Source: Methanomicrobiales archaeon
GTDB taxonomy: Archaea > Halobacteriota > Methanomicrobia > Methanomicrobiales > Methanospirillaceae
Assembly: GCA_012729535.1 (NCBI GenBank)
Contig: JAAYCY010000067.1
Span: forward strand, 1 to 34,471
Length of the DNA: 34,471 nt
Reading direction: 5' to 3'
The notes beneath the pieces were generated by a model. The model worked only from the letters and a program-made list of their open reading frames with translations, had not been told where the DNA came from and did no database searches. Both the position numbers and the translations under genes were made by a program. Within the stretch, counting starts at the first letter, position 1, and every line of letters begins with the position of its first letter. This document shows positions 174 through 9,473 of this stretch, piece by piece.

Positions 174-767
174 ATGAAAGTCGTTGCATTCAACGGAAGT
201 CCGAGAAAGGATGGAAATACTGCTATTCTTCTCAATTATGTCCTACACGAACTGTCAGCGGAAGGAATCGAAACTGAACTTGTTCAGCTTGCAGGAGAGA
301 GGATTATCGGATGCAGGGGGTGTTACACCTGTTGGGAAAGAAAAGATGGACGTTGTGCTATTGATACCGATATTCTCAATGATTGCATAGAGAAAATGCT
401 CGACGCAGATGGGATACTTATGGGTTCTCCTGTCTATTATGGGGACATAACCGCTGAAATGAAAGCCCTGCTTGATCGCTCATTTTTTGTTGCACGGGCA
501 AATAACTATCTGTTTCGCCGCAAAGTAGCTGCTGCTGTAGTTGCCGTCAGAAGAGCAGGAGCATCAAATACTCTGGATACCATGTACCGGTATTTTACAC
601 CTGCTATGATGGTAATTCCCGGTTCAACATACTGGAATCTTGGTATGGGGGAAGCAATCGGAGAAGTGGAAAAGGATGAAGAAGGGATATTAACCATGAA
701 AAACCTTGGCAGGAATATGGCCTGGTTGATAAAGGCTTTACATGCCTATAATACATCAGGTAATTAA
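174..767 (+). CDS. Iron-sulfur flavoprotein (Isf family, flavodoxin-like)
   Basis: The 197-residue product is a flavodoxin-fold protein that should bind FMN and a [4Fe-4S] cluster and move electrons in the cytoplasm of the anaerobe. The N-terminus KVVAFNGSPRKDGNT is the FMN-phosphate loop of the NADPH-dependent FMN reductase superfamily. Cysteines 47, 50, 53 and 61 form the compact Cx2Cx2Cx7C cluster motif that defines iron-sulfur flavoproteins of methanogens. GSPVYYGDITAEMKALLDR (about 82-100) is the second flavin-contact segment. The length is usual for the family. The ATG is preceded by GAGGT five bases upstream. In methanogens Isf proteins have been linked to oxygen or peroxide defence and to ferredoxin oxidation; the partner here is unknown. 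The family assignment is secure, the physiological substrate is not. Confidence 0.9.
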   Translation: MKVVAFNGSPRKDGNTAILLNYVLHELSAEGIETELVQLAGERIIGCRGCYTCWERKDGRCAIDTDILNDCIEKMLDADGILMGSPVYYGDITAEMKALLDRSFFVARANNYLFRRKVAAAVVAVRRAGASNTLDTMYRYFTPAMMVIPGSTYWNLGMGEAIGEVEKDEEGILTMKNLGRNMAWLIKALHAYNTSGN

Positions 768-1329
768 TTAACACTCTTAAAGTAATATCGTGAAATTTAT
801 TGGAGCAGGCTCTTTCAAGCCCGAAGATCGAGGGATCATATGTCAGGCATATTGTCATCATCATCTATACAAAGGTAATCGATGAAGGCCGGTTTAATCG
901 AATGGTAATAAATGAACAAAACAAAAGGTTCCAGATCTGTGTCGGTACTCTGAATTGATGCATCGCTAAATACGCCCCTGGTCAGCGAACTTCTCCGCGT
1001 AGGAAAAGGGATTTCCTGTTTTTTAACATCTGCTCCGTTTCCTCCTTTACCCTTGCTAAATATTGTCTGATGTACTGTTTCTCCGGAGTCTATGAGTGAA
1101 ACCTATCCATCTATTCTGACCCACAAGGTCATCTGGGACAATTTCAGACAAGTTTTAGCATGATTGTATCTATTCTAATGGAAAAGGTGCCTACTCTCTA
1201 ATATTCCTCATTTATGAATTATTTCTGATTATCTAATAGTGCCAGAGTTTAGTATAACCTCGAATATGATGATATTTACATAACGACAGTACCGGCGATC
1301 TCCTACACCTCTAAAGACTATCGCATTTT
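768..1329. other. Intergenic stretch without a recognisable gene
   Basis: These 562 bases lie between two convergent genes. Both strands carry only short frames with no ribosome binding site and no recognisable protein motif. No hairpin followed by a clear T-run, no tRNA-like arrangement and no obvious repeats were seen. It may hold a degraded gene or a non-coding RNA, but nothing in the sequence supports either. Confidence 0.5.
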
Positions 1330-1599
1330 TTATTTTGAAGCCAGATTTCTGTTAATATGCCGGAAATATTTCCAGTGCAGGAGAATGTGGATAATTATCA
1401 GGCCAGCGAAAATCAGGCTGGTGTAGTCATGCATATTCAACCACTGGTCACGAGAAATATTCAGATATGATCGGCCTCCTAATCCTCTTCCTCCTCCAGA
1501 TGGCAGAAAAAGATATAAAACGACTCCCGATATGAATGAAGGTGCGAAAAAAACCAGAGCAGCAAGATCAACAATTGCATTAATTGTATACCGTTTCAT
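1330..1599 (-). CDS. DUF4405 family small membrane protein
   Basis: This is an 89-residue integral membrane protein of the DUF4405 type, a domain related to the two-helix haem-b cytochromes. One hydrophobic segment covers about residues 8-30 (IVDLAALVFFAPSFISGVVLY) and a second about 60-76 (SLIFAGLIIIHILLHWKYF). Histidines sit in MHDYTS and in HILLHWKYFRH, the positions from which related proteins coordinate haem, so it may carry one, though this is inference. A glycine-rich loop (PSGGGRGLGG) joins the helices. The gene stands alone, convergent with the iron-sulfur flavoprotein. A redox or sensor role in the membrane is plausible, but no partner is visible. Confidence 0.75.
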   Translation of the reverse strand: MKRYTINAIVDLAALVFFAPSFISGVVLYLFLPSGGGRGLGGRSYLNISRDQWLNMHDYTSLIFAGLIIIHILLHWKYFRHINRNLASK

Positions 1600-1804
1600 A
1601 GTATTTCATTCTATGATTGGAATGGAGAAAGTAAATAATTGTGGAGAACAAAAAAGTTCTAAAAAATCTTCAGGTAAAATTGTTCTTTTTTTCCAGAATT
1701 AGCTATGTGATATAGTCTTTTTTAACATTAACGAAAATGAAATTATTAAAAACAGGCTCTTACCGTTTTATGTTGGTAAGTTAAAGGTATTCTAATCGTA
1801 CTTG

Positions 1805-2716
1805 TTATTCCTCAAAATAATCAGAGTCGATTTTTTTAACGATGTACCGCGACTCCTCAGATACCCCCACATTATGATCTATCATCATTTGGGTCAGGGT
1901 TTCCCCATCAATTAATACAACCTTCTGTTCAATACGTTGGACATATTCAATAGCATCTCTAGAAAATCTTGATGTAGTAATGAATACTCCCTTACGAGCA
2001 CGATTCCCTGCAAGACTTCCTACAAAGGCCTGTATTTCAGGTCTTCCTACTGTGTTCTGCCATCTCTTGGCTTGAATGTTGACAATGTCTAGTCCCAGTT
2101 TATCTTCTTTGATTATGCCATCTATTCCATCGTCACCTGACTTACCAACTCGTTCTCCTGCTTCACTCCTAGACCCTCCATACCCCATTGCAACTAGAAG
2201 ATCAACGACCAGTCTTTCAAAGAACTCTGGGGAACTATTCATTACCTGAGTTAAGAGTTCATGAGCCAGTTTATTTCGTAAATCCTGATAACTGTTTTCC
2301 AGTATTTCCTGTGGGGTCAGGTTACTTTCCTGAAAAACAGTAACTTCATTGTATTTTAACTGATTCTCTGATTTAAAACCTTGAAATTCAAGAAATTCAG
2401 GAAACTGTTTCAGGAAGTTCTGATCTATCTTACTTGGATTCTGTTTTAATACTGATAAACCACGATCTGTGATCCTTACCTTCCCTCTTGAAGGAGTAGA
2501 AACTAACCCTGCTTTTTTAAGATACGTCTTGGCCCACCCTACCCGGTTATCAAAAGTAGACTGAACCCCACTTGGCAATTTCTGATTACGTTCATCTTCT
2601 GAAAGGTTGAATGAAGAAGCTATTTGGTTATATATTTCCTGAACATGGTGTTCCTTTCCATCTTTTACGGATAATAGGACTGGAAGCATGAATGTCTGAT
2701 AATCAGGAATAGTCAT
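1805..2716 (-). CDS. mrr: Mrr-type restriction endonuclease (type IV, modification-dependent)
   Basis: The 303-residue protein matches Mrr from end to end. Residues 1-95 are the winged-helix Mrr N-domain that reads DNA (PSGVQSTFDNRVGWAKTYL, then RITDRGLSVL). Residues 160-280 are the Mrr_cat domain with a PD-(D/E)XK-type active site: E168 in FFERLVVDLL, D199 in DDGIDG, and Q215-A-K217 in the strand NIQAKRW. All expected catalytic residues are present, so the enzyme looks intact. Mrr proteins cleave DNA carrying foreign methylation, so the likely job is defence against modified phage or plasmid DNA. It stands alone, with no methyltransferase or specificity gene beside it, as expected for a type IV enzyme. 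The ATG has no strong ribosome binding site, so the start is the least certain point. Confidence 0.9.
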   Translation of the reverse strand: MTIPDYQTFMLPVLLSVKDGKEHHVQEIYNQIASSFNLSEDERNQKLPSGVQSTFDNRVGWAKTYLKKAGLVSTPSRGKVRITDRGLSVLKQNPSKIDQNFLKQFPEFLEFQGFKSENQLKYNEVTVFQESNLTPQEILENSYQDLRNKLAHELLTQVMNSSPEFFERLVVDLLVAMGYGGSRSEAGERVGKSGDDGIDGIIKEDKLGLDIVNIQAKRWQNTVGRPEIQAFVGSLAGNRARKGVFITTSRFSRDAIEYVQRIEQKVVLIDGETLTQMMIDHNVGVSEESRYIVKKIDSDYFEE

Positions 2717-3026
2717 GTATACTATTCGATATCTTTCATAACACCATAATTACTTCGAAATAACTTTCTATGTATTATTTATTTAGTCCAGTCATTGAGG
2801 TTTAACTCGATTAAAGAGCGAATGGATACATATGTAGGTTTATGAAGATTTTGATATTATTTCGTCTGTTATCAATTGATTAAAGCAACAACATCCCTGA
2901 TATTTCATCTAAAGATTTACTTTTAAACCAATAATCTAAAAGCGGCTCAAATTTTTTAGATGCTTTCAAAGAACAAGGGATAATGCGGAAAAAGGGTAAT
3001 TATGCTGAAAAAAGAAAACCAGGGGA
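2717..3026. other. AT-rich gap between mrr and the VWA gene
   Basis: This 310-base gap should contain the mrr promoter (minus strand) and the terminator of the VWA gene. On the minus strand a frame of about 55 codons runs out of the VWA tail and ends near 2884, but it has no start signal and no convincing similarity. Otherwise nothing is visible. Confidence 0.4.
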
Positions 3027-4991
3027 TTATCTCATACTAGATGTGTATTGCCCGCTGTCTTCATTGTTTTTTACAATTATCCTGACAGTCCGCTTTCCTC
3101 CGTCAGTAATCTCGTCAGGGGTATAATAGCCGATTATGTAGGTCTGCGTGATAACCCCCTGTATCCTGTCCAGTATGGCTGAAAAATCGTCTCCATGAAT
3201 ATCAATGAAAAGACCACTTCCACCTAGGGATTTAATTAGCTCACGTTTATCGTTATTTTCATTAAAAACACCTGGAACGGTGGTCGGACCAACAAGTATG
3301 AAGCTGGTTCCATTATCAAGCAGATGATCTGCCGTTTCCGGAATGGTATACTTGGAAAATCTTGTTCCATCACCGCGGTAATGGGTTGTACTGTCAGTAA
3401 TGTCAAGGATCATATGCTGTGCATCAGGGCGGAAGCCAAAACCAAGGGCGGTTTCTATTGCATCGAGGTTTACTTCAGGATCATCAAAACCTTCCTCTGC
3501 AGTAAGGCTGTCAATTGCTTTTCTTATCACTGCCGGATCACTTGTCCATTCCTGCTGTACGACGACACTATCTTTAAAACTGATTAATGAGTACCTGCAG
3601 TCAATATTTGCTGCACTGATACTTTCTGTCAGCCCGTGGATCTTTTCTTTCATATCACCAATCTCATCTACCAGACTACCGGTGTCATCAAAAACAATCA
3701 CCAGATCAAGACTGGTTTTATCAGAACTATCGGTAAATGAGAATGATGTAATATTCATGAGTTCATCGTCTTCGTATACCTTAAAATCTGTCTCTGTAAG
3801 TTCTCCTGATCTTCCATCCGTTGTGTTTACCGTGACATATGAGAGTATATACGGGAAATTAACGGCATTTATTCCGGTAATGTCAACAATGGATCTTCCC
3901 AGTGTACTGATCTCATCTGATATATCGGAAATGCCAGTCTCCTGGTCACTTGTCTGATAGGTAATTAATGGAAGAGGTGCTGCCAGAGAATCCTGTATAT
4001 GTGAGACGGTAAACAGACCGCTGTCGAAATCATCTCCTACCCGAACCTCTATGGAAATTTTTTTATCTTTTTCATGGTAATTTGGAGAATAATACCAGAT
4101 GGTGTAGGTCTCAGTGATGATGGACTGAATTTTGTCCAGGATGACAGAAAATTCATCACTGTGAATATCAATAAAAAGGCCACTCCCTCCAAGAGCTTTT
4201 ACTAGTTCTTTCTTGTCACTATGAATGGTATAACCACCTGATGTCGATGCTGGTCCGACAAGTATGTAACTTGTCCCATTACTGATAAGATGCTCAGTTG
4301 TTTCAGGAATAGTGAATTGTGAGAACTCGGTGCCATCGCCGCGGTAATGAGTCATACTATCTGTTATATCAAGGATCATATGCTGGGCATCGGGACGAAA
4401 ACCAGACAATAGGGTAGTTTCAATTGCATCAAGGTTAACCTCTGGTGCGTCATCTCCTCCATCAGCTTCTAATCCGTCAACAGCATTTTTCATGATAGCC
4501 GGATCAGATGTCCATCCCTGTTTTATGATCACTTCATCATTGAAACTAATGAGTGAATACCTGCAGTCAATATTTGCAGAAGCAAGATTATCAGTCAGTT
4601 GTTTGACTTTGGCCTTTAGATCAGCGATCTCTTCGCTCATACTACCGGTTTCATCAAAAACAATGGCAAGGTCAAGTTTTGTACGAGAGGTCTTATCAGG
4701 GAACTGGACTGATGCAGTTTCCATCAGTTCTCCATCTTCAAAGATATGAAAATCTTCTTTTCTGAGCTGGCCTTCTCTCCCCTCAGGGGTATTTACCCTG
4801 ACATACGTGATAACATTGGGGAAATTTACCGCATTTACTCCGGTTATTTCAACAACAGAACTTCCCGGCATGCTGATTGGAACTGATGAAACCTGGCTCA
4901 CGCTATCTGCGAGAGCTGGCAGGCCTGCTTGTAACAACGTAAGTGCTATACAAACCAAAATTAAAAACCAGGTCAATTTTTTTGTATTCAT
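3027..4991 (-). CDS. Secreted protein with two tandem von Willebrand factor A units
   Basis: Start chosen at 4991, where GGGAG lies seven bases upstream and a signal peptide begins (MNTKKLTWFLILVCIALTLL, cleavage after LPALA near residue 28). A longer frame from 5027 would bury the signal. The 654-residue product consists of two copies of one ~290-residue unit. Each unit starts with a small beta-domain (ITGxNAVNFP, then GEL/GQL-xxxDFxxxEDxELM), followed by a VWA domain. The metal-ion (MIDAS) motifs are DETGS at 113-117 and DDTGS at 435-439, the DxTGS variant of DxSGS. Further matched blocks include SANIDCRYSLISF, PEVNLDAIET and RPDAQHMILDITDS. No transmembrane or sorting segment is obvious at the C-terminus, so it is probably released or bound to the cell sheath or S-layer. 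VWA domains bind protein partners through a divalent cation; the ligand is unknown. The two copies remain similar at DNA level, indicating a fairly recent duplication. Confidence 0.85.
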   Translation of the reverse strand: MNTKKLTWFLILVCIALTLLQAGLPALADSVSQVSSVPISMPGSSVVEITGVNAVNFPNVITYVRVNTPEGREGQLRKEDFHIFEDGELMETASVQFPDKTSRTKLDLAIVFDETGSMSEEIADLKAKVKQLTDNLASANIDCRYSLISFNDEVIIKQGWTSDPAIMKNAVDGLEADGGDDAPEVNLDAIETTLLSGFRPDAQHMILDITDSMTHYRGDGTEFSQFTIPETTEHLISNGTSYILVGPASTSGGYTIHSDKKELVKALGGSGLFIDIHSDEFSVILDKIQSIITETYTIWYYSPNYHEKDKKISIEVRVGDDFDSGLFTVSHIQDSLAAPLPLITYQTSDQETGISDISDEISTLGRSIVDITGINAVNFPYILSYVTVNTTDGRSGELTETDFKVYEDDELMNITSFSFTDSSDKTSLDLVIVFDDTGSLVDEIGDMKEKIHGLTESISAANIDCRYSLISFKDSVVVQQEWTSDPAVIRKAIDSLTAEEGFDDPEVNLDAIETALGFGFRPDAQHMILDITDSTTHYRGDGTRFSKYTIPETADHLLDNGTSFILVGPTTVPGVFNENNDKRELIKSLGGSGLFIDIHGDDFSAILDRIQGVITQTYIIGYYTPDEITDGGKRTVRIIVKNNEDSGQYTSSMR

Positions 4992-5179
4992 AATAAATCT
5001 CCCAGTGGATGTAGCTGGACATATCATGTTACACTTTTTTTAAGTGACGAATATATCCAAGGGTATTCACAGGGTAATCGATCATGAATGGGCATATACA
5101 TTTCGATATACGGTAAGGTAAAATAAAGAAAACCTGATGCTTAAAACTTGGAAAAGGAATTCTTTTTTGATTATATCAA

Positions 5180-5226
5180 TTAATTATCAAAAAGAAGCTG
5201 TTAATTATCATTAGTGAGTATAGATT
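5180..5226 (+). promoter_or_regulatory. Direct repeat TTAATTATCA x2 and TATA-like element before the TIR gene
   Basis: The 10-base sequence TTAATTATCA occurs exactly at 5180-5189 and 5201-5210, start-to-start 21 bases, i.e. two helical turns, so both copies face the same side of the DNA. An AGTATAGAT element follows at about 5217-5226, some 25 bases before the ATG at 5249, where an archaeal TATA box would give a short leader. Two same-phase repeats just upstream of a TATA box are typical of activator or cooperative regulator sites. AT-richness makes chance repeats possible. Confidence 0.4.
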
Positions 5227-5248
5227 TGTTAACGGAAGGTTTTGCTGC

Positions 5249-5818
5249 ATGCCTAAAAAAGTTTTTTTCTGTATTGCTAACCAGGATATGAATGATCTTC
5301 GAATAAACGTGGTAAGATCTCATAAAATTACTCATGATAATCACGGCGGTTATTTCCCACCATATCTATGGGAAGCTGCTACAAAATCCGGAGATGATTC
5401 TATTAGAAAACTGATTGACGTACAGATTCAGCAATCTTGTGTTTCTGCTGTTTTGATTGGTACTAATACCTACAATCAACGGTGGGTTAAATATGAAATT
5501 TTTCGAAGTATGAAAAAAGGTAACAAACTTCTTGGTATCCATATAAACAGTATTGAAGGACGTGATGGACGAGGAAAACCTCTTGGCCCGAATCCTTTTA
5601 GTTATCTAGGGTTCTCATATAGTCCGGACGGAAAAGAATTTATCCCTCATGAATATGTAGATGAAAATTGGGTTCCTTTCAAGGATATGCCTGTATATAA
5701 GGTCAGAGAGGTCCCTGAGCAACATCGGAATAAAATATTTACCTTAACGAAAATTGCAAAAACCTATGACTGGATGGCAGACAAAGGTCAGGTAAATTTT
5801 CCCCAATGGATAGAGTAA
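5249..5818 (+). CDS. TIR-like (DUF1863/ThsB-type) protein
   Basis: The 189-residue protein is a single TIR-like domain of the MTH538/DUF1863 group, the group that includes ThsB of the Thoeris anti-phage system. Diagnostic parts are the first strand and loop (KKVFFCIANQDMNDLRINVV, residues 3-22), the WEAATKSGDDSIRKLID segment (41-57), and SAVLIGTNTYNQRWVKYEI (66-84). In the last, E83 sits where TIR NAD-hydrolases or cyclases carry their catalytic glutamate. A purine-rich GGAAGG lies about ten bases before the ATG. In Thoeris, ThsB makes a cyclic ADP-ribose signal that switches on ThsA, an NADase with SIR2 and SLOG domains. No ThsA-like gene is present here: the neighbours are a VWA protein and a transglutaminase. 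It may be an orphan signal generator acting on an effector elsewhere, a stand-alone NAD-consuming toxin, or a non-defence protein. The fold is confident, the function is inferred. Confidence 0.8.
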   Translation: MPKKVFFCIANQDMNDLRINVVRSHKITHDNHGGYFPPYLWEAATKSGDDSIRKLIDVQIQQSCVSAVLIGTNTYNQRWVKYEIFRSMKKGNKLLGIHINSIEGRDGRGKPLGPNPFSYLGFSYSPDGKEFIPHEYVDENWVPFKDMPVYKVREVPEQHRNKIFTLTKIAKTYDWMADKGQVNFPQWIE

Positions 5819-6110
5819 AATCGGGCGTTCCGGATAATCCTTTTTTTGATAAATTGATACGTCATCCGGCTTTTCTGAGTTTTAATTGAGCGAATCATAC
5901 CTGTGAACGAATCATGTCCCCGGGTGAATCCTGCATACATTTTACGTTCCCGTGCTCTTGGTACATTTCGGACCGGATTTGATAGTTATATTGCCCATGA
6001 GGGAACCAAACTTAGTCTTGATGATCTAATAAACGATAATCTAATTCAACCGATTGTCATCTTTTTTGATGCTGACAACACTTATTTTCCTTTTGTCCTC
6101 TTATTGTTAT
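5819..6110 (+). other. Gap before the transglutaminase gene
   Basis: The stretch carries one open frame beginning at a GTG (5903) and running into the transglutaminase gene at 6160. Its sequence (FRTGFDSYIAHEG, then LNDNLIQPIVIF-like residues) resembles no family I know and it overlaps the signal-peptide region in another frame. It is treated as a probable non-gene or a remnant. Confidence 0.3.
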
Positions 6111-7619
6111 ATGATGAAATTATCAGTCATAACTGCTCTTCTCCTCATCATCTCCTGTAGTATTAGTTATGCAGATATAAATGGAGATGAACTGTTCAAA
6201 TCAGGATTAGATGCATTCAACAATCATAACTTTGAAAAATCAATTGATTTTTTCAACCAGTCGATAATCGTTTATGATGAGGAAAAAAACCTAGAAGCTG
6301 CACGAAATGCCCATCATATGAAAAACCGGGCAACATGGATGCTGGTTGAGATGGTCTACAATATAACACAGGCCAGAGAGGTTCTTAGATCAAGTTATCC
6401 AAATCTTTCAGAAGAGGAGCGTGAGCGATATCTTTTACCCGGTGAATCAATACAAATGATTTCTGACGGACAAGTCCGGTTTTTTATTGGAATTGCAAAT
6501 AATGCCGCCTATCATAATATCAGTATTTTAAAGGAAATTTCCCGATCAAAGGGCCAATCTGAAGGTTTTGATGAACTCTATCCGGTCATCACTGCTGATA
6601 GCAGGTTTAATGGTCCGTATGGGAATCCTAAAACCTTCCAGGCAAACAATACGTTAAGCATTCCCCGGGAATATCTGCCGGATTTGGGCACCCTTCAGGT
6701 ATGGCTTCCTCTGCCCATTGAACTTGAAAGTCAGAAAGATATCTCCGTAAACTATCTGGAACCTGCAGAATATGTCAAATCCGAACCGATAACCAACGGG
6801 GATCATGGTCAGGTATATTTTGAGATTCCGCTTTCTGAAATGAATGGTCCATTTCTGAATGTATCAGCTGGTTACCAGTTTACAGTATTTGAGCGCCGGC
6901 ACAAAGTTGATCCGGAACGTATAAGTCCATATGATAAATCAACTAAATTTTACCCGCAATATACCCGGTCACAGCCCAATATTAAAATTACTCCGGAGAT
7001 TTCTGATCTGGCAAAGGAGATAGTCGGCGATGAAATGAATCCCTACCGGATGGCAGAGAAGATATACTGGTATATTCTCGATACTTATCCATACAGCACT
7101 GTCCCCCATACATATCTTGCTGCAGCAAAAATTCCGGAATCAAATTTTATGTATGAAACCGGATATGGTGATTGTGGAACCCAGAGCATGTTTTTTTGTG
7201 CCCTTTGTAGATCGCTTGGGATTCCTGCACGTTCTGCCGGAGGATACCAGTTGATTCCAGGTCTTGCCGGTCCTCATTTCTGGGCAGAATTTTATCTCCC
7301 CGAATATGGTTGGATTCCGGTGGATATTACCATTGCAGGAAGTGCTGATTCAGCTTTTGATAAACCTGTAGAAGATCTGGAAAGGTATAAGGCGTATTTC
7401 TTTGGAAATATGGATCCGTACCGGTACACCATTCAAAATGATGTTGATATTCCAGTCTCCCCGGACCCTGAAAATGATATTATCTTTACAATGGTACATC
7501 AGGCACCGGTTGTTGTCTGCAAAGAATCCTGGGAAGATGTTGAACTGATAGGAATGGGATATCGGACCATCACTTTTTCAGAGGTGTCTACATTAAAAAA
7601 TGCCTTAAACCTTTTGTGA
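6111..7619 (+). CDS. Secreted transglutaminase-like protein with N-terminal helical/TPR region
   Basis: The start at 6111 gives a short basic N-terminus and hydrophobic core (MMKLSVITALLLIISCSISYA), a signal peptide or possibly a lipoprotein leader with a Cys near residue 16. The 502-residue product continues with a TPR-like helical region (LFKSGLDAFNNHNFEKSIDFFNQS), a beta-rich middle (about 200-285) and a transglutaminase-like core. The core has all three catalytic residues: C355 in GYGDCGTQS, H389 in GPHFWAEFY and D405 in WIPVDIT. Such proteins outside eukaryotes usually act as papain-like proteases or amidases on surface proteins or peptides rather than cross-linkers. No strong ribosome binding site precedes either adjacent ATG (6111 or 6114). 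It is followed by the phosphatase-like gene after a 51-base gap and may share its transcript. The fold is confident, the substrate unknown. Confidence 0.85.
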   Translation: MMKLSVITALLLIISCSISYADINGDELFKSGLDAFNNHNFEKSIDFFNQSIIVYDEEKNLEAARNAHHMKNRATWMLVEMVYNITQAREVLRSSYPNLSEEERERYLLPGESIQMISDGQVRFFIGIANNAAYHNISILKEISRSKGQSEGFDELYPVITADSRFNGPYGNPKTFQANNTLSIPREYLPDLGTLQVWLPLPIELESQKDISVNYLEPAEYVKSEPITNGDHGQVYFEIPLSEMNGPFLNVSAGYQFTVFERRHKVDPERISPYDKSTKFYPQYTRSQPNIKITPEISDLAKEIVGDEMNPYRMAEKIYWYILDTYPYSTVPHTYLAAAKIPESNFMYETGYGDCGTQSMFFCALCRSLGIPARSAGGYQLIPGLAGPHFWAEFYLPEYGWIPVDITIAGSADSAFDKPVEDLERYKAYFFGNMDPYRYTIQNDVDIPVSPDPENDIIFTMVHQAPVVVCKESWEDVELIGMGYRTITFSEVSTLKNALNLL

Positions 7620-7670
7620 ACAATTTTTTTAGAATATATGTCTAATCCATGCTTGGAGACAGGAGCCATC

Positions 7671-8102
7671 GTGAGAATCCGGATATTATTTATCAGCACA
7701 GATAACGCTATCCGCTCACAAATCGCTGAAGGTTATCTGCGTTTTCAGTATGGAGATATCTTTGAAGTATACAGTGCTGGAATACGTCCTTTAACGGTTC
7801 ATCCCATGGCAGTCGAAGTGATGCAAGAGATAGGAATTGACATATCCAGACAACAATCAGATGATATTTTTATGTATCTGGATAAAAATATTGATCTCGC
7901 TGTATCACTCTGCGAAAAAGCCTCATACGCTTGTCCAGTGTTTCCAGGTGCTAGAAAAACAGTTCACCAAGAGTTTTTCTACATAACCTGCCCTCAGGAA
8001 AAAAATGATAATTATAGAAAAGAGTTTCTTCTTCTTCGGGATGAAATAATCTCTTGGATTGATGAAAATGCAAAAACCGGAGGATTATTTCATTTTCTCT
8101 AA
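7671..8102 (+). CDS. Arsenate-reductase/LMW phosphatase homologue lacking the catalytic cysteine
   Basis: A GTG start at 7671 is chosen because AGGAG lies five bases upstream; the in-frame ATG at 7638 has no such signal. The 143-residue product aligns along its length with the low-molecular-weight phosphatase/ArsC family: ILFISTDNAIRSQIAEG (phosphate loop), YSAGIRPLTVHPMAVEVMQEIGIDIS, and CEKASYACPVFPG with cysteines 81 and 88. Functional members have Cys-x5-Arg in the loop; here the Cys is Ser9 (codon AGC) while Arg15 is kept. The usual Asp-Pro near residue 105-110, the general acid, appears as TCPQ. Both chemistry-bearing residues are therefore gone, although the resolving-type cysteine pair remains. 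The reading frame is intact, so it may be a phosphate- or anion-binding pseudoenzyme rather than debris. A normal thioredoxin-linked arsenate reductase is excluded by the missing nucleophile. Confidence 0.8.
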   Translation: MRIRILFISTDNAIRSQIAEGYLRFQYGDIFEVYSAGIRPLTVHPMAVEVMQEIGIDISRQQSDDIFMYLDKNIDLAVSLCEKASYACPVFPGARKTVHQEFFYITCPQEKNDNYRKEFLLLRDEIISWIDENAKTGGLFHFL

Positions 8103-8184
8103 CAGAAAAAATCACACAAAAAACGAAAATGTTGGTAATATCCAAAAACCATTCTTAATTACCGCACCTGAATTTTCAAAAAAA

Positions 8185-8553
8185 TTATTTTTCATGAAGG
8201 TATAGGGCCATCCCCATCCGGATGTTAATCATAGCTTCAACATATTCACCATTCTTTTTCAGAACCAGACCCCTGTTATACCATGCCTCCGGATTATACT
8301 GATCGACTTCTATCAATGAACCATATGCCCTGATAGCTGCCGGATAATTCCCCAAATATTCGTATGTTTTTCCTTTATTCATAAGTGCGGCCTTATTATT
8401 AGGCTCTTTTTTAATCACCCTGTCATAAAGTCGTAATGCAACACTATAATCCCCTTTATTCATAGATAGGTTTGCATCATGAAGTATGGATTCTACTGCT
8501 TCTTTCAATCGCTGTTGATAATTCCAAGTTGATGTGATTGTGCCTGATGTCAT
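8185..8553 (-). CDS. Small TPR-repeat protein
   Basis: The 122-residue protein is made almost entirely of about two and a half tetratricopeptide repeats: ANLSMNKGDYSVALRLYDRVIKKEPNN (about 27-53), ALMNKGKTYEYLGNYPAAIRAYGSLIEVDQYN and AWYNRGLVLKKNGEYVEAMIN. The consensus W-LG-Y-A-P pattern is clear. There is no signal peptide, so it should act in the cytoplasm as a protein-binding scaffold. It is convergent with the phosphatase-like gene and preceded on its own strand by the methyltransferase gene after 245 bases. The partner is not suggested by its neighbours. TPR proteins of this size are numerous in methanogens, and a specific role cannot be assigned. Confidence 0.8.
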   Translation of the reverse strand: MTSGTITSTWNYQQRLKEAVESILHDANLSMNKGDYSVALRLYDRVIKKEPNNKAALMNKGKTYEYLGNYPAAIRAYGSLIEVDQYNPEAWYNRGLVLKKNGEYVEAMINIRMGMALYLHEK

Positions 8554-8798
8554 ACAGATTCCCTCCTGTTTTATGATGAATTGTTCTCATCTTTTTAGGA
8601 TTATTTTATGATATACTCGTTAAATATTAATTATTTGCACTCCAGAGACGCTCTGCACAGGTGCAACACATGTTTGCATTCAGGAAATGCAGTATAAATC
8701 TGCTAGTTGGATCTGCATTACACAAATGCCATGCAATAGGAAAAAAGAAGATAACTGGTATGACTTCAATTGTATCAAATATTTTCAGTAAATATTTA

Positions 8799-9473
8799 TT
8801 ATTTTTTCCCAACCGTGACTAAAAAGGTACGGTTACGGTATACAACATCAACATCAGAAAAACCGGCATTAGAAAGCCACCGTATTTGATCTGATAATTT
8901 TTCATTCTGGTCCATTTCGCATCTCCTTCTTAAAATCTCCAAGCGTTCAGGTTCATTGAATGATCCGGACATGAGAAAATCGTTCCAGTATGCCTGATAC
9001 CGGTTAGAAAAATAAGGTGTCTCTCCTTCTGACTGGTCGGCATTAACAAATATTCCTCCAGGATTGAGTGCAGAATAGATCTTTTTGAATAATTTCTTTT
9101 TATCCTCAGATATCAGGTGGTGGATGGATAGTGCTGAGCATACAATGTCATATGGGCCACCAATGTCAGATTTGCTGTAATCAGTAACTATGTAATTAAT
9201 GTTATTATTTCCAGAAAATCGTTTTCTTGCAATTTCAAGCATATTCTTTGCAAAATCCATGAGAGTGATAGTTGCATGGGGAAATTTCTTAAGGACAAAC
9301 ATGCTTAAAAGGCCGGTTCCTGCACCAATGTCCAGAATATTCGGTTCCTCTAAAGGTGATTCTGCAGCCCAAACAGCTGATCCGTAAAACTGGTGAAAAT
9401 CAGGAATGATATGTTCCCGGTGTTTATCATATTCCTGTGCAAGGGAATCGAATGCCTTACGAATATTTTCCAT
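8799..9473 (-). CDS. Class I SAM-dependent methyltransferase
   Basis: The 224-residue protein is a Rossmann-fold methyltransferase. Motif I is ILDIGAGTG (46-54), followed by TLMDFAKNMLEIARKR (acidic residue of motif II and the helix after it), YIVTDYSKSD (motif III) and the DIVCSALSIHHL strand (motif IV). The leading segment FDSLAQEYDKHREHIIPDF is the helical cap seen in UbiE/BioC-like small-molecule methyltransferases. The substrate cannot be told; there is no quinone or biotin gene beside it. The ATG has an AGGT ten bases upstream. It is transcribed alone, with a 245-base gap to the TPR gene, and its start faces the remains of a histidine kinase on the other strand. Confidence 0.85.
   Translation of the reverse strand: MENIRKAFDSLAQEYDKHREHIIPDFHQFYGSAVWAAESPLEEPNILDIGAGTGLLSMFVLKKFPHATITLMDFAKNMLEIARKRFSGNNNINYIVTDYSKSDIGGPYDIVCSALSIHHLISEDKKKLFKKIYSALNPGGIFVNADQSEGETPYFSNRYQAYWNDFLMSGSFNEPERLEILRRRCEMDQNEKLSDQIRWLSNAGFSDVDVVYRNRTFLVTVGKK

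What the first reader, a model, noticed from the sequence alone, without database searches (positions are those of the whole stretch)
7671..8102. LMW phosphatase/ArsC homologue with the nucleophilic cysteine changed to serine
The phosphate loop reads S9-TDNAI-R15, where active enzymes have Cys-x5-Arg, and the general-acid Asp-Pro appears lost as well. The ORF is intact, has a strong ribosome binding site at the GTG, and keeps the Cys81/Cys88 pair typical of thioredoxin-linked arsenate reductases. This suggests selection for a binding, non-catalytic role, such as a phosphoprotein trap or oxyanion sensor.
Basis: partly seen in the sequence, partly recalled or inferred. Interest (0 to 1): 0.5.

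Follow-up and report, generated by a model that had tools for sequence, protein, structure and literature searches.

The report
Conserved dead arsenate-reductase-like protein in methanogen
A methane-producing archaeon carries a relative of arsenate reductase whose catalytic cysteine has become serine; a second species has the same change in the same gene neighbourhood, and selection keeps the gene intact, so it probably binds something instead of catalysing.

Summary
Window 7671-8102 (+) encodes an intact 143-residue ArsC/LMWPc-fold protein with S9-TDNAI-R15 where the family has Cys-x5-Arg; the general-acid Asp-Pro is gone too. It is not a private mutation or sequencing error: a syntenic orthologue in Methanospirillum stamsii (67% identical) has the same AGC serine and also lacks Asp-Pro. 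dN/dS between the two is about 0.2, and neutral simulations at matched divergence never kept both open frame and observed identity. Of 40 columns conserved in 118 Cys-type relatives, both proteins keep 30, including P-loop residues; the shared losses include nucleophile and acid. No other intact LMWPc gene was found in the window's genome. Best reading: a genus-restricted pseudoenzyme that keeps an oxyanion/phospho-binding pocket. Binding and partner are inferred. Dead ArsC relatives are known in kinetoplastids (Cys to Gly), and I found a separate syntenic Cys-to-Gly clade in another genus of the same order.

The parts
7671..8102 (+). Ser-type ArsC/LMWPc pseudoenzyme, 143 aa, GTG start
   Evidence: orthologue L052:13131-13568
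7695..7715 (+). P-loop S9-T-D-N-A-I-R15; Ser codon AGC at 7695-7697
   Evidence: Ser codon also AGC in M. stamsii
7911..7913 (+). Cys81 codon (Ser in M. stamsii)
7932..7934 (+). Cys88 codon (kept in M. stamsii)
7980..7985 (+). Tyr104-Ile105 where Cys-type relatives have the general acid Asp-Pro
7662..7665 (+). GGAG, ribosome-binding-site-like, five bases before the GTG
6054..7619 (+). transglutaminase-core protein (ORF from TTG; an ATG at 6114 is the likelier start), same strand, 51 bases upstream; neighbour also in M. stamsii (75% identical)
5249..5818 (+). ThsB-type TIR-like protein; syntenic in M. stamsii (87%)
8185..8553 (-). TPR protein; syntenic in M. stamsii (73%)

Best explanation
The ORF is a genus-restricted pseudoenzyme of the ArsC/LMWPc family in Methanospirillum. 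Shown: the nucleophilic Cys is replaced by Ser and the general acid is lost in two species at one syntenic locus, while the scaffold and most P-loop residues (Thr10, Asn12, Arg15, Ser16, Gln17, Glu20, Gly21, also Ser35) are kept, and the gene pair shows purifying selection. Inferred: it neither reduces arsenate nor dephosphorylates, but still binds an oxyanion or a phosphorylated partner in the P-loop and acts as a binding or scaffold protein.
For: Orthologue with Ser in M. stamsii, syntenic across VWA/TIR/transglutaminase/ArsC/TPR. dN 0.20, dS 0.96 (NG86, 143 codons); third-position changes dominate. Neutral simulation: at d=0.6 and d=0.8, whose fourfold identity (0.60, 0.53) brackets the observed 19 of 35, 0 of 2000 runs each had no stop and at least the observed 94 of 139 identities. 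Of 40 columns at least 90% conserved in 118 Cys-type rows, 30 are kept in both Ser proteins, 6 lost in both (C9, M18, D104, P105, G110, R120), 4 lost in one. AlphaFold2 model mean pLDDT 86 from a 5-sequence alignment; the top solved matches are ArsC (best Z 19.1), the C10S/C15A mutants among them (Z 17.0 and 17.5). The window's genome has no second LMWPc match over the Pfam model, so a spare copy does not explain its upkeep there.
Against: Only two species carry it (2 of 12 genus genomes; 2 of the 12 had no match at all), and the selection estimate rests on one pair. Its dN/dS, about 0.21, is the highest of the pairs computed: 0.07-0.17 for three Cys-type pairs, about 0.07-0.18 for four neighbours. 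At a low divergence, d=0.2, 40 of 2000 neutral runs did match, though their fourfold identity, 0.83, is far above the observed. The stem branch is long (1.19 changes per column). No expression, binding or partner data. Kept loop residues may serve folding alone.
Confidence: 0.62

Rival explanations
1. A scaffold or assembly protein with no ligand in the P-loop: the fold was recruited for protein-protein contact and the loop residues are kept only for stability.
For: Kinetoplastid ArsC-like proteins have Gly for the catalytic Cys (PMC2175518 section 15), and an LMWPc-domain chain named mt-SAF26 sits in trypanosome mitoribosomal small-subunit structures (6sga, 7pua, 9hny; Z 15.6-16.7). That these are the same protein was not checked.
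Against: Arg15, Ser16 and Asn12 are all kept in both Ser proteins although catalysis is lost.
Confidence: 0.2
2. The serine acts as a weak nucleophile that becomes phosphorylated, giving a stable phosphoserine trap or slow switch.
For: A solved structure of YwlE arginine phosphatase C7S, of the same superfamily, carries a phosphorylated active-site serine (title of 4kk4).
Against: That is an engineered mutant of another subfamily; Asp-Pro is lost here.
Confidence: 0.1
3. A decaying gene that has only recently lost function.
For: ArsC copies do decay in this genus: the window genome's ordinary copy is a fragment with a stop at the Cys codon and Arg changed, and G156 has a broken copy.
Against: Both Ser copies are intact; dN/dS about 0.2; neutral simulations at matched divergence do not reproduce the pair.
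Confidence: 0.05

Closest known systems
Thioredoxin-coupled arsenate reductase (pI258 / B. subtilis ArsC, TIGR02691)
   Same: Fold, length, P-loop Arg and Asn, Cys88; Cys81 in the window copy
   Different: Ser for Cys10, no Asp-Pro, score below the equivalog cut-off; Cys81 not conserved
Kinetoplastid ArsC-like proteins; LMWPc-domain chain mt-SAF26
   Same: Catalytic Cys lost, P-loop Arg kept, ArsC branch of the family (PMC2175518 section 15)
   Different: Gly not Ser, general-acid Asp kept, both relay Cys lost, two long insertions (same section)
Engineered ArsC mutants C10S/C15A (1jf8, 1jfv) and C10S/C15A/C82S (2ipa)
   Same: M. stamsii naturally has Ser9, Ser81 and Cys88, the pattern of the 2ipa construct at those positions
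   Different: Natural, and the general acid is lost too; the window copy keeps Cys81
STYX-type pseudophosphatases
   Same: Catalytic Cys replaced in a kept P-loop; a works-like analogy (passage in PMC2175518; listing)
   Different: Another phosphatase family, eukaryotic

Membership tests
LMWPc / ArsC superfamily | Sequence and fold of the family | tested here: met
   Pfam LMWPc over cut-off; ArsC best solved matches
Thioredoxin-coupled arsenate reductase (TIGR02691) | Nucleophilic Cys in Cys-x5-Arg | tested here: not met
   Ser9 in window and M. stamsii
Thioredoxin-coupled arsenate reductase (TIGR02691) | Relay pair Cys82/Cys89 | tested here: inconclusive
   Both in the window, only the second in M. 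stamsii
Thioredoxin-coupled arsenate reductase (TIGR02691) | General acid Asp-Pro | tested here: not met
   Tyr-Ile and Asn-Ile
Thioredoxin-coupled arsenate reductase (TIGR02691) | Equivalog score cut-off 174.3 bits | tested here: not met
   96.9 bits
Pseudophosphatase (works-like class) | Catalytic residue lost, fold kept, change conserved under selection | tested here: met
   (two species)
Pseudophosphatase (works-like class) | No enzymatic activity; ligand or partner binding | not testable with these tools
   Needs assays

The most novel reading that the evidence does not exclude
Methanogens of this order have at least twice turned an ArsC-type enzyme into a stable non-catalytic reader: a Ser form beside a transglutaminase gene in Methanospirillum, and a Gly form beside purE-like and thiC-like genes in another genus. 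Together with the kinetoplastid Cys-to-Gly proteins this would make the ArsC fold a recurrent source of phospho- or oxyanion-binding regulators.
Probability: 0.3. Interest if true: 0.6.

Novelty: new variant of a known kind. Interest (0 to 1): 0.4.

Why it matters
Natural dead members of the ArsC branch seem little described: my three searches pairing pseudophosphatase or pseudoenzyme with this family returned 1, 2 and 0 papers, and the one I opened, on kinetoplastids, describes a Cys-to-Gly case. A conserved Ser form in a cultured archaeon would let the trap-like C10S state, otherwise an engineered tool, be studied as a natural protein, and would test whether archaea use pseudophosphatases.

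Tried and rejected
Sequencing error or private mutation: rejected by the independent M. stamsii record. Redox role through Cys81/Cys88: weakened by Ser81 in M. stamsii. Arsenic-operon context: of the eight neighbouring proteins scanned with Pfam (window 174-9473), none is an arsenic-resistance protein; the rest of the genome was not searched for ars genes. Viral carriage: two viral-contig scans, with the M. stamsii Ser protein and with its Cys protein, confirmed no relative; such scans reach close relatives only.

Origin of the Ser clade is not settled. In the 145-row tree it joins a Methanospirillum paralogue whose Asp-Pro is also altered (91/88, not starred). In a tree of 50 rows chosen by hand it falls among Cys-type Methanospirillum copies (set of 6 with 98/99), and the first grouping is not rejected (p-AU 0.223). 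Both point inside the genus. The stem branch is long and the columns are few.

Rarity. The AGY-serine P-loop pattern matched 5 stretches in genome contigs (84,980 species; the window's own genome may be left out). All five match the window protein by tblastn: M. stamsii, a Planctomycetota, a Desulfuromonadales, a Pelobacter, and a Thiodiazotropha stretch, cut at the end of the fetched DNA, with Cys just before the Ser. In four of the five the neighbourhood was not studied. The TCN version matched 0 of 392 genomes of the phylum. The pattern is not fully sensitive: its Cys version matched 98 of 199 genomes of the order, while 160 of 199 have a relative by protein search. So these counts are lower bounds. 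The search for related loci on genome contigs with the window protein confirmed nothing. A paper search for mt-SAF26 gave nothing; a wider listing was not opened.

Full report
What is there. The ORF at 7671-8102 encodes 143 residues with S9-T-D-N-A-I-R15. It belongs to LMWPc and its best matches among solved structures are thioredoxin-type ArsC; the predicted model (mean pLDDT 86, 5-sequence alignment in which all rows have Ser there) gives the same answer by fold.

Where it occurs. G149 is in the genus group of the window's genome, so I infer that the window is from a Methanospirillum. The block VWA protein, TIR-like protein, transglutaminase, Ser-ArsC, TPR protein is conserved in both. In the genus search, 10 of 12 genomes have a relative and only these 2 have the Ser form. 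In eight stretches fetched around other transglutaminase relatives of the genus (L083-L090), no ArsC ORF was found beside them.

Selection. Differences per codon by position are 0.19, 0.17 and 0.41; dN is 0.20 and dS 0.96, ratio about 0.21. Three Cys-type pairs give 0.07-0.17 and four neighbouring genes about 0.07-0.18, so the Ser gene is constrained but the least so of those compared. In simulations without selection, runs with fourfold identity near the observed 19 of 35 (d=0.6 and 0.8) averaged 44 and 32 identities of 139 and 6-7 stops; 0 of 2000 each matched the observed 94 identities with no stop. At d=0.4 and 1.0 also 0 of 2000 matched; at d=0.2, 40 of 2000 did, but fourfold identity there is 0.83.

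What was lost and kept. Against 118 Cys-type relatives, 40 columns are at least 90% conserved. Both Ser proteins keep 30. Lost in both are C9, M18, D104, P105, G110 and R120; lost in one are A47, K64, C81 and D124. The shared losses thus include the nucleophile, the general acid and its Pro; three others are not known to me as catalytic. Arg15, Asn12 and Ser16 stay. That Cys10, Cys82 and Cys89 are the redox cysteines and that the P-loop binds oxyanions is stated in passages I saw of PMC6193951 and PMC2714181; Asp as general acid is in PMC2175518 section 15. The roles of the other loop residues are recalled.

The ordinary copy. The window genome's other match is a 43-residue stretch at G000:C14 with a stop at the Cys codon and Arg changed to Ser; the frame ends soon after. 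A Pfam LMWPc search finds only the Ser gene in this genome (assembly 96.8% complete). M. stamsii keeps an intact Cys copy (L032:2427-2858).

Survey. Of 150 different readable matches from the order, genus and g19 searches, 122 have Cys and Arg, 23 Gly and Arg, 2 Ser and Arg; 3 are broken or not covered at the loop. A few genes appear twice (for example two rows of G022), the set was enriched for Gly forms, and not every match was fetched, so these are not frequencies. The Gly forms are one clade (100/100). In genus g19 they occur as near full-length copies in 22 of 35 genomes, one with an internal stop; an ORF I recognise as thiC-like is beside 21 and one purE-like beside 20 of these 22 loci (gene names recalled, not scanned).

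Mechanism. Loss of nucleophile and acid makes reduction and dephosphorylation very unlikely (established chemistry of the family). The kept P-loop residues suggest binding; C10S/C15A ArsC has been crystallised folded (titles of 1jf8 and 1jfv). Binding, ligand and partner are inference. In M. stamsii only Cys88 of the three remains, the position that thioredoxin attacks in ArsC, so a single-thiol contact with thioredoxin is possible but untested.

Known precedents. Kinetoplastid ArsC-like proteins lack the Cys (PMC2175518, passages and section 15 seen). Searches pairing pseudoenzyme or pseudophosphatase with arsenate reductase gave 0 and 2 papers; one of the two was opened, the other seen in the listing only. 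No title in the listings for Methanospirillum with arsenate reductase (4 papers) or for M. stamsii (9 papers) is about this protein; none of these was opened.

Noticed in passing
L096-L117 (genus g19, same order): Separate ArsC clade with Gly at the nucleophile (FIGTNNAARTQ), Asp-Pro and both relay Cys kept, beside purE-like and thiC-like ORFs in 20 and 21 of 22 loci; looks like a second conserved pseudo-ArsC.
   Followed up: partly
G000:C14:90846-90974 (L002): Fragment of the ordinary ArsC in the window's genome, with a stop at the Cys codon and Arg changed to Ser.
   Followed up: yes
L033, L034, L060/L081, L079: Second Cys-type ArsC paralogue in four other Methanospirillum genomes with Asp-Pro changed to DH, DQ or TP, next to an ORF related to the window's flavin-reductase-like gene.
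   Followed up: partly
5249-5818 (+) and 3027-5027 (-): ThsB-type TIR-like protein beside a double-VWA protein; the TIR-like protein is the most conserved of the block between the two species (87%).
   Followed up: no
L092, L095: Two bacterial ArsC-like proteins with Ser in the P-loop, Asp-Pro kept and a Cys-rich insert.
   Followed up: no
1805-2716 (-): Mrr-type restriction endonuclease gene.
   Followed up: no
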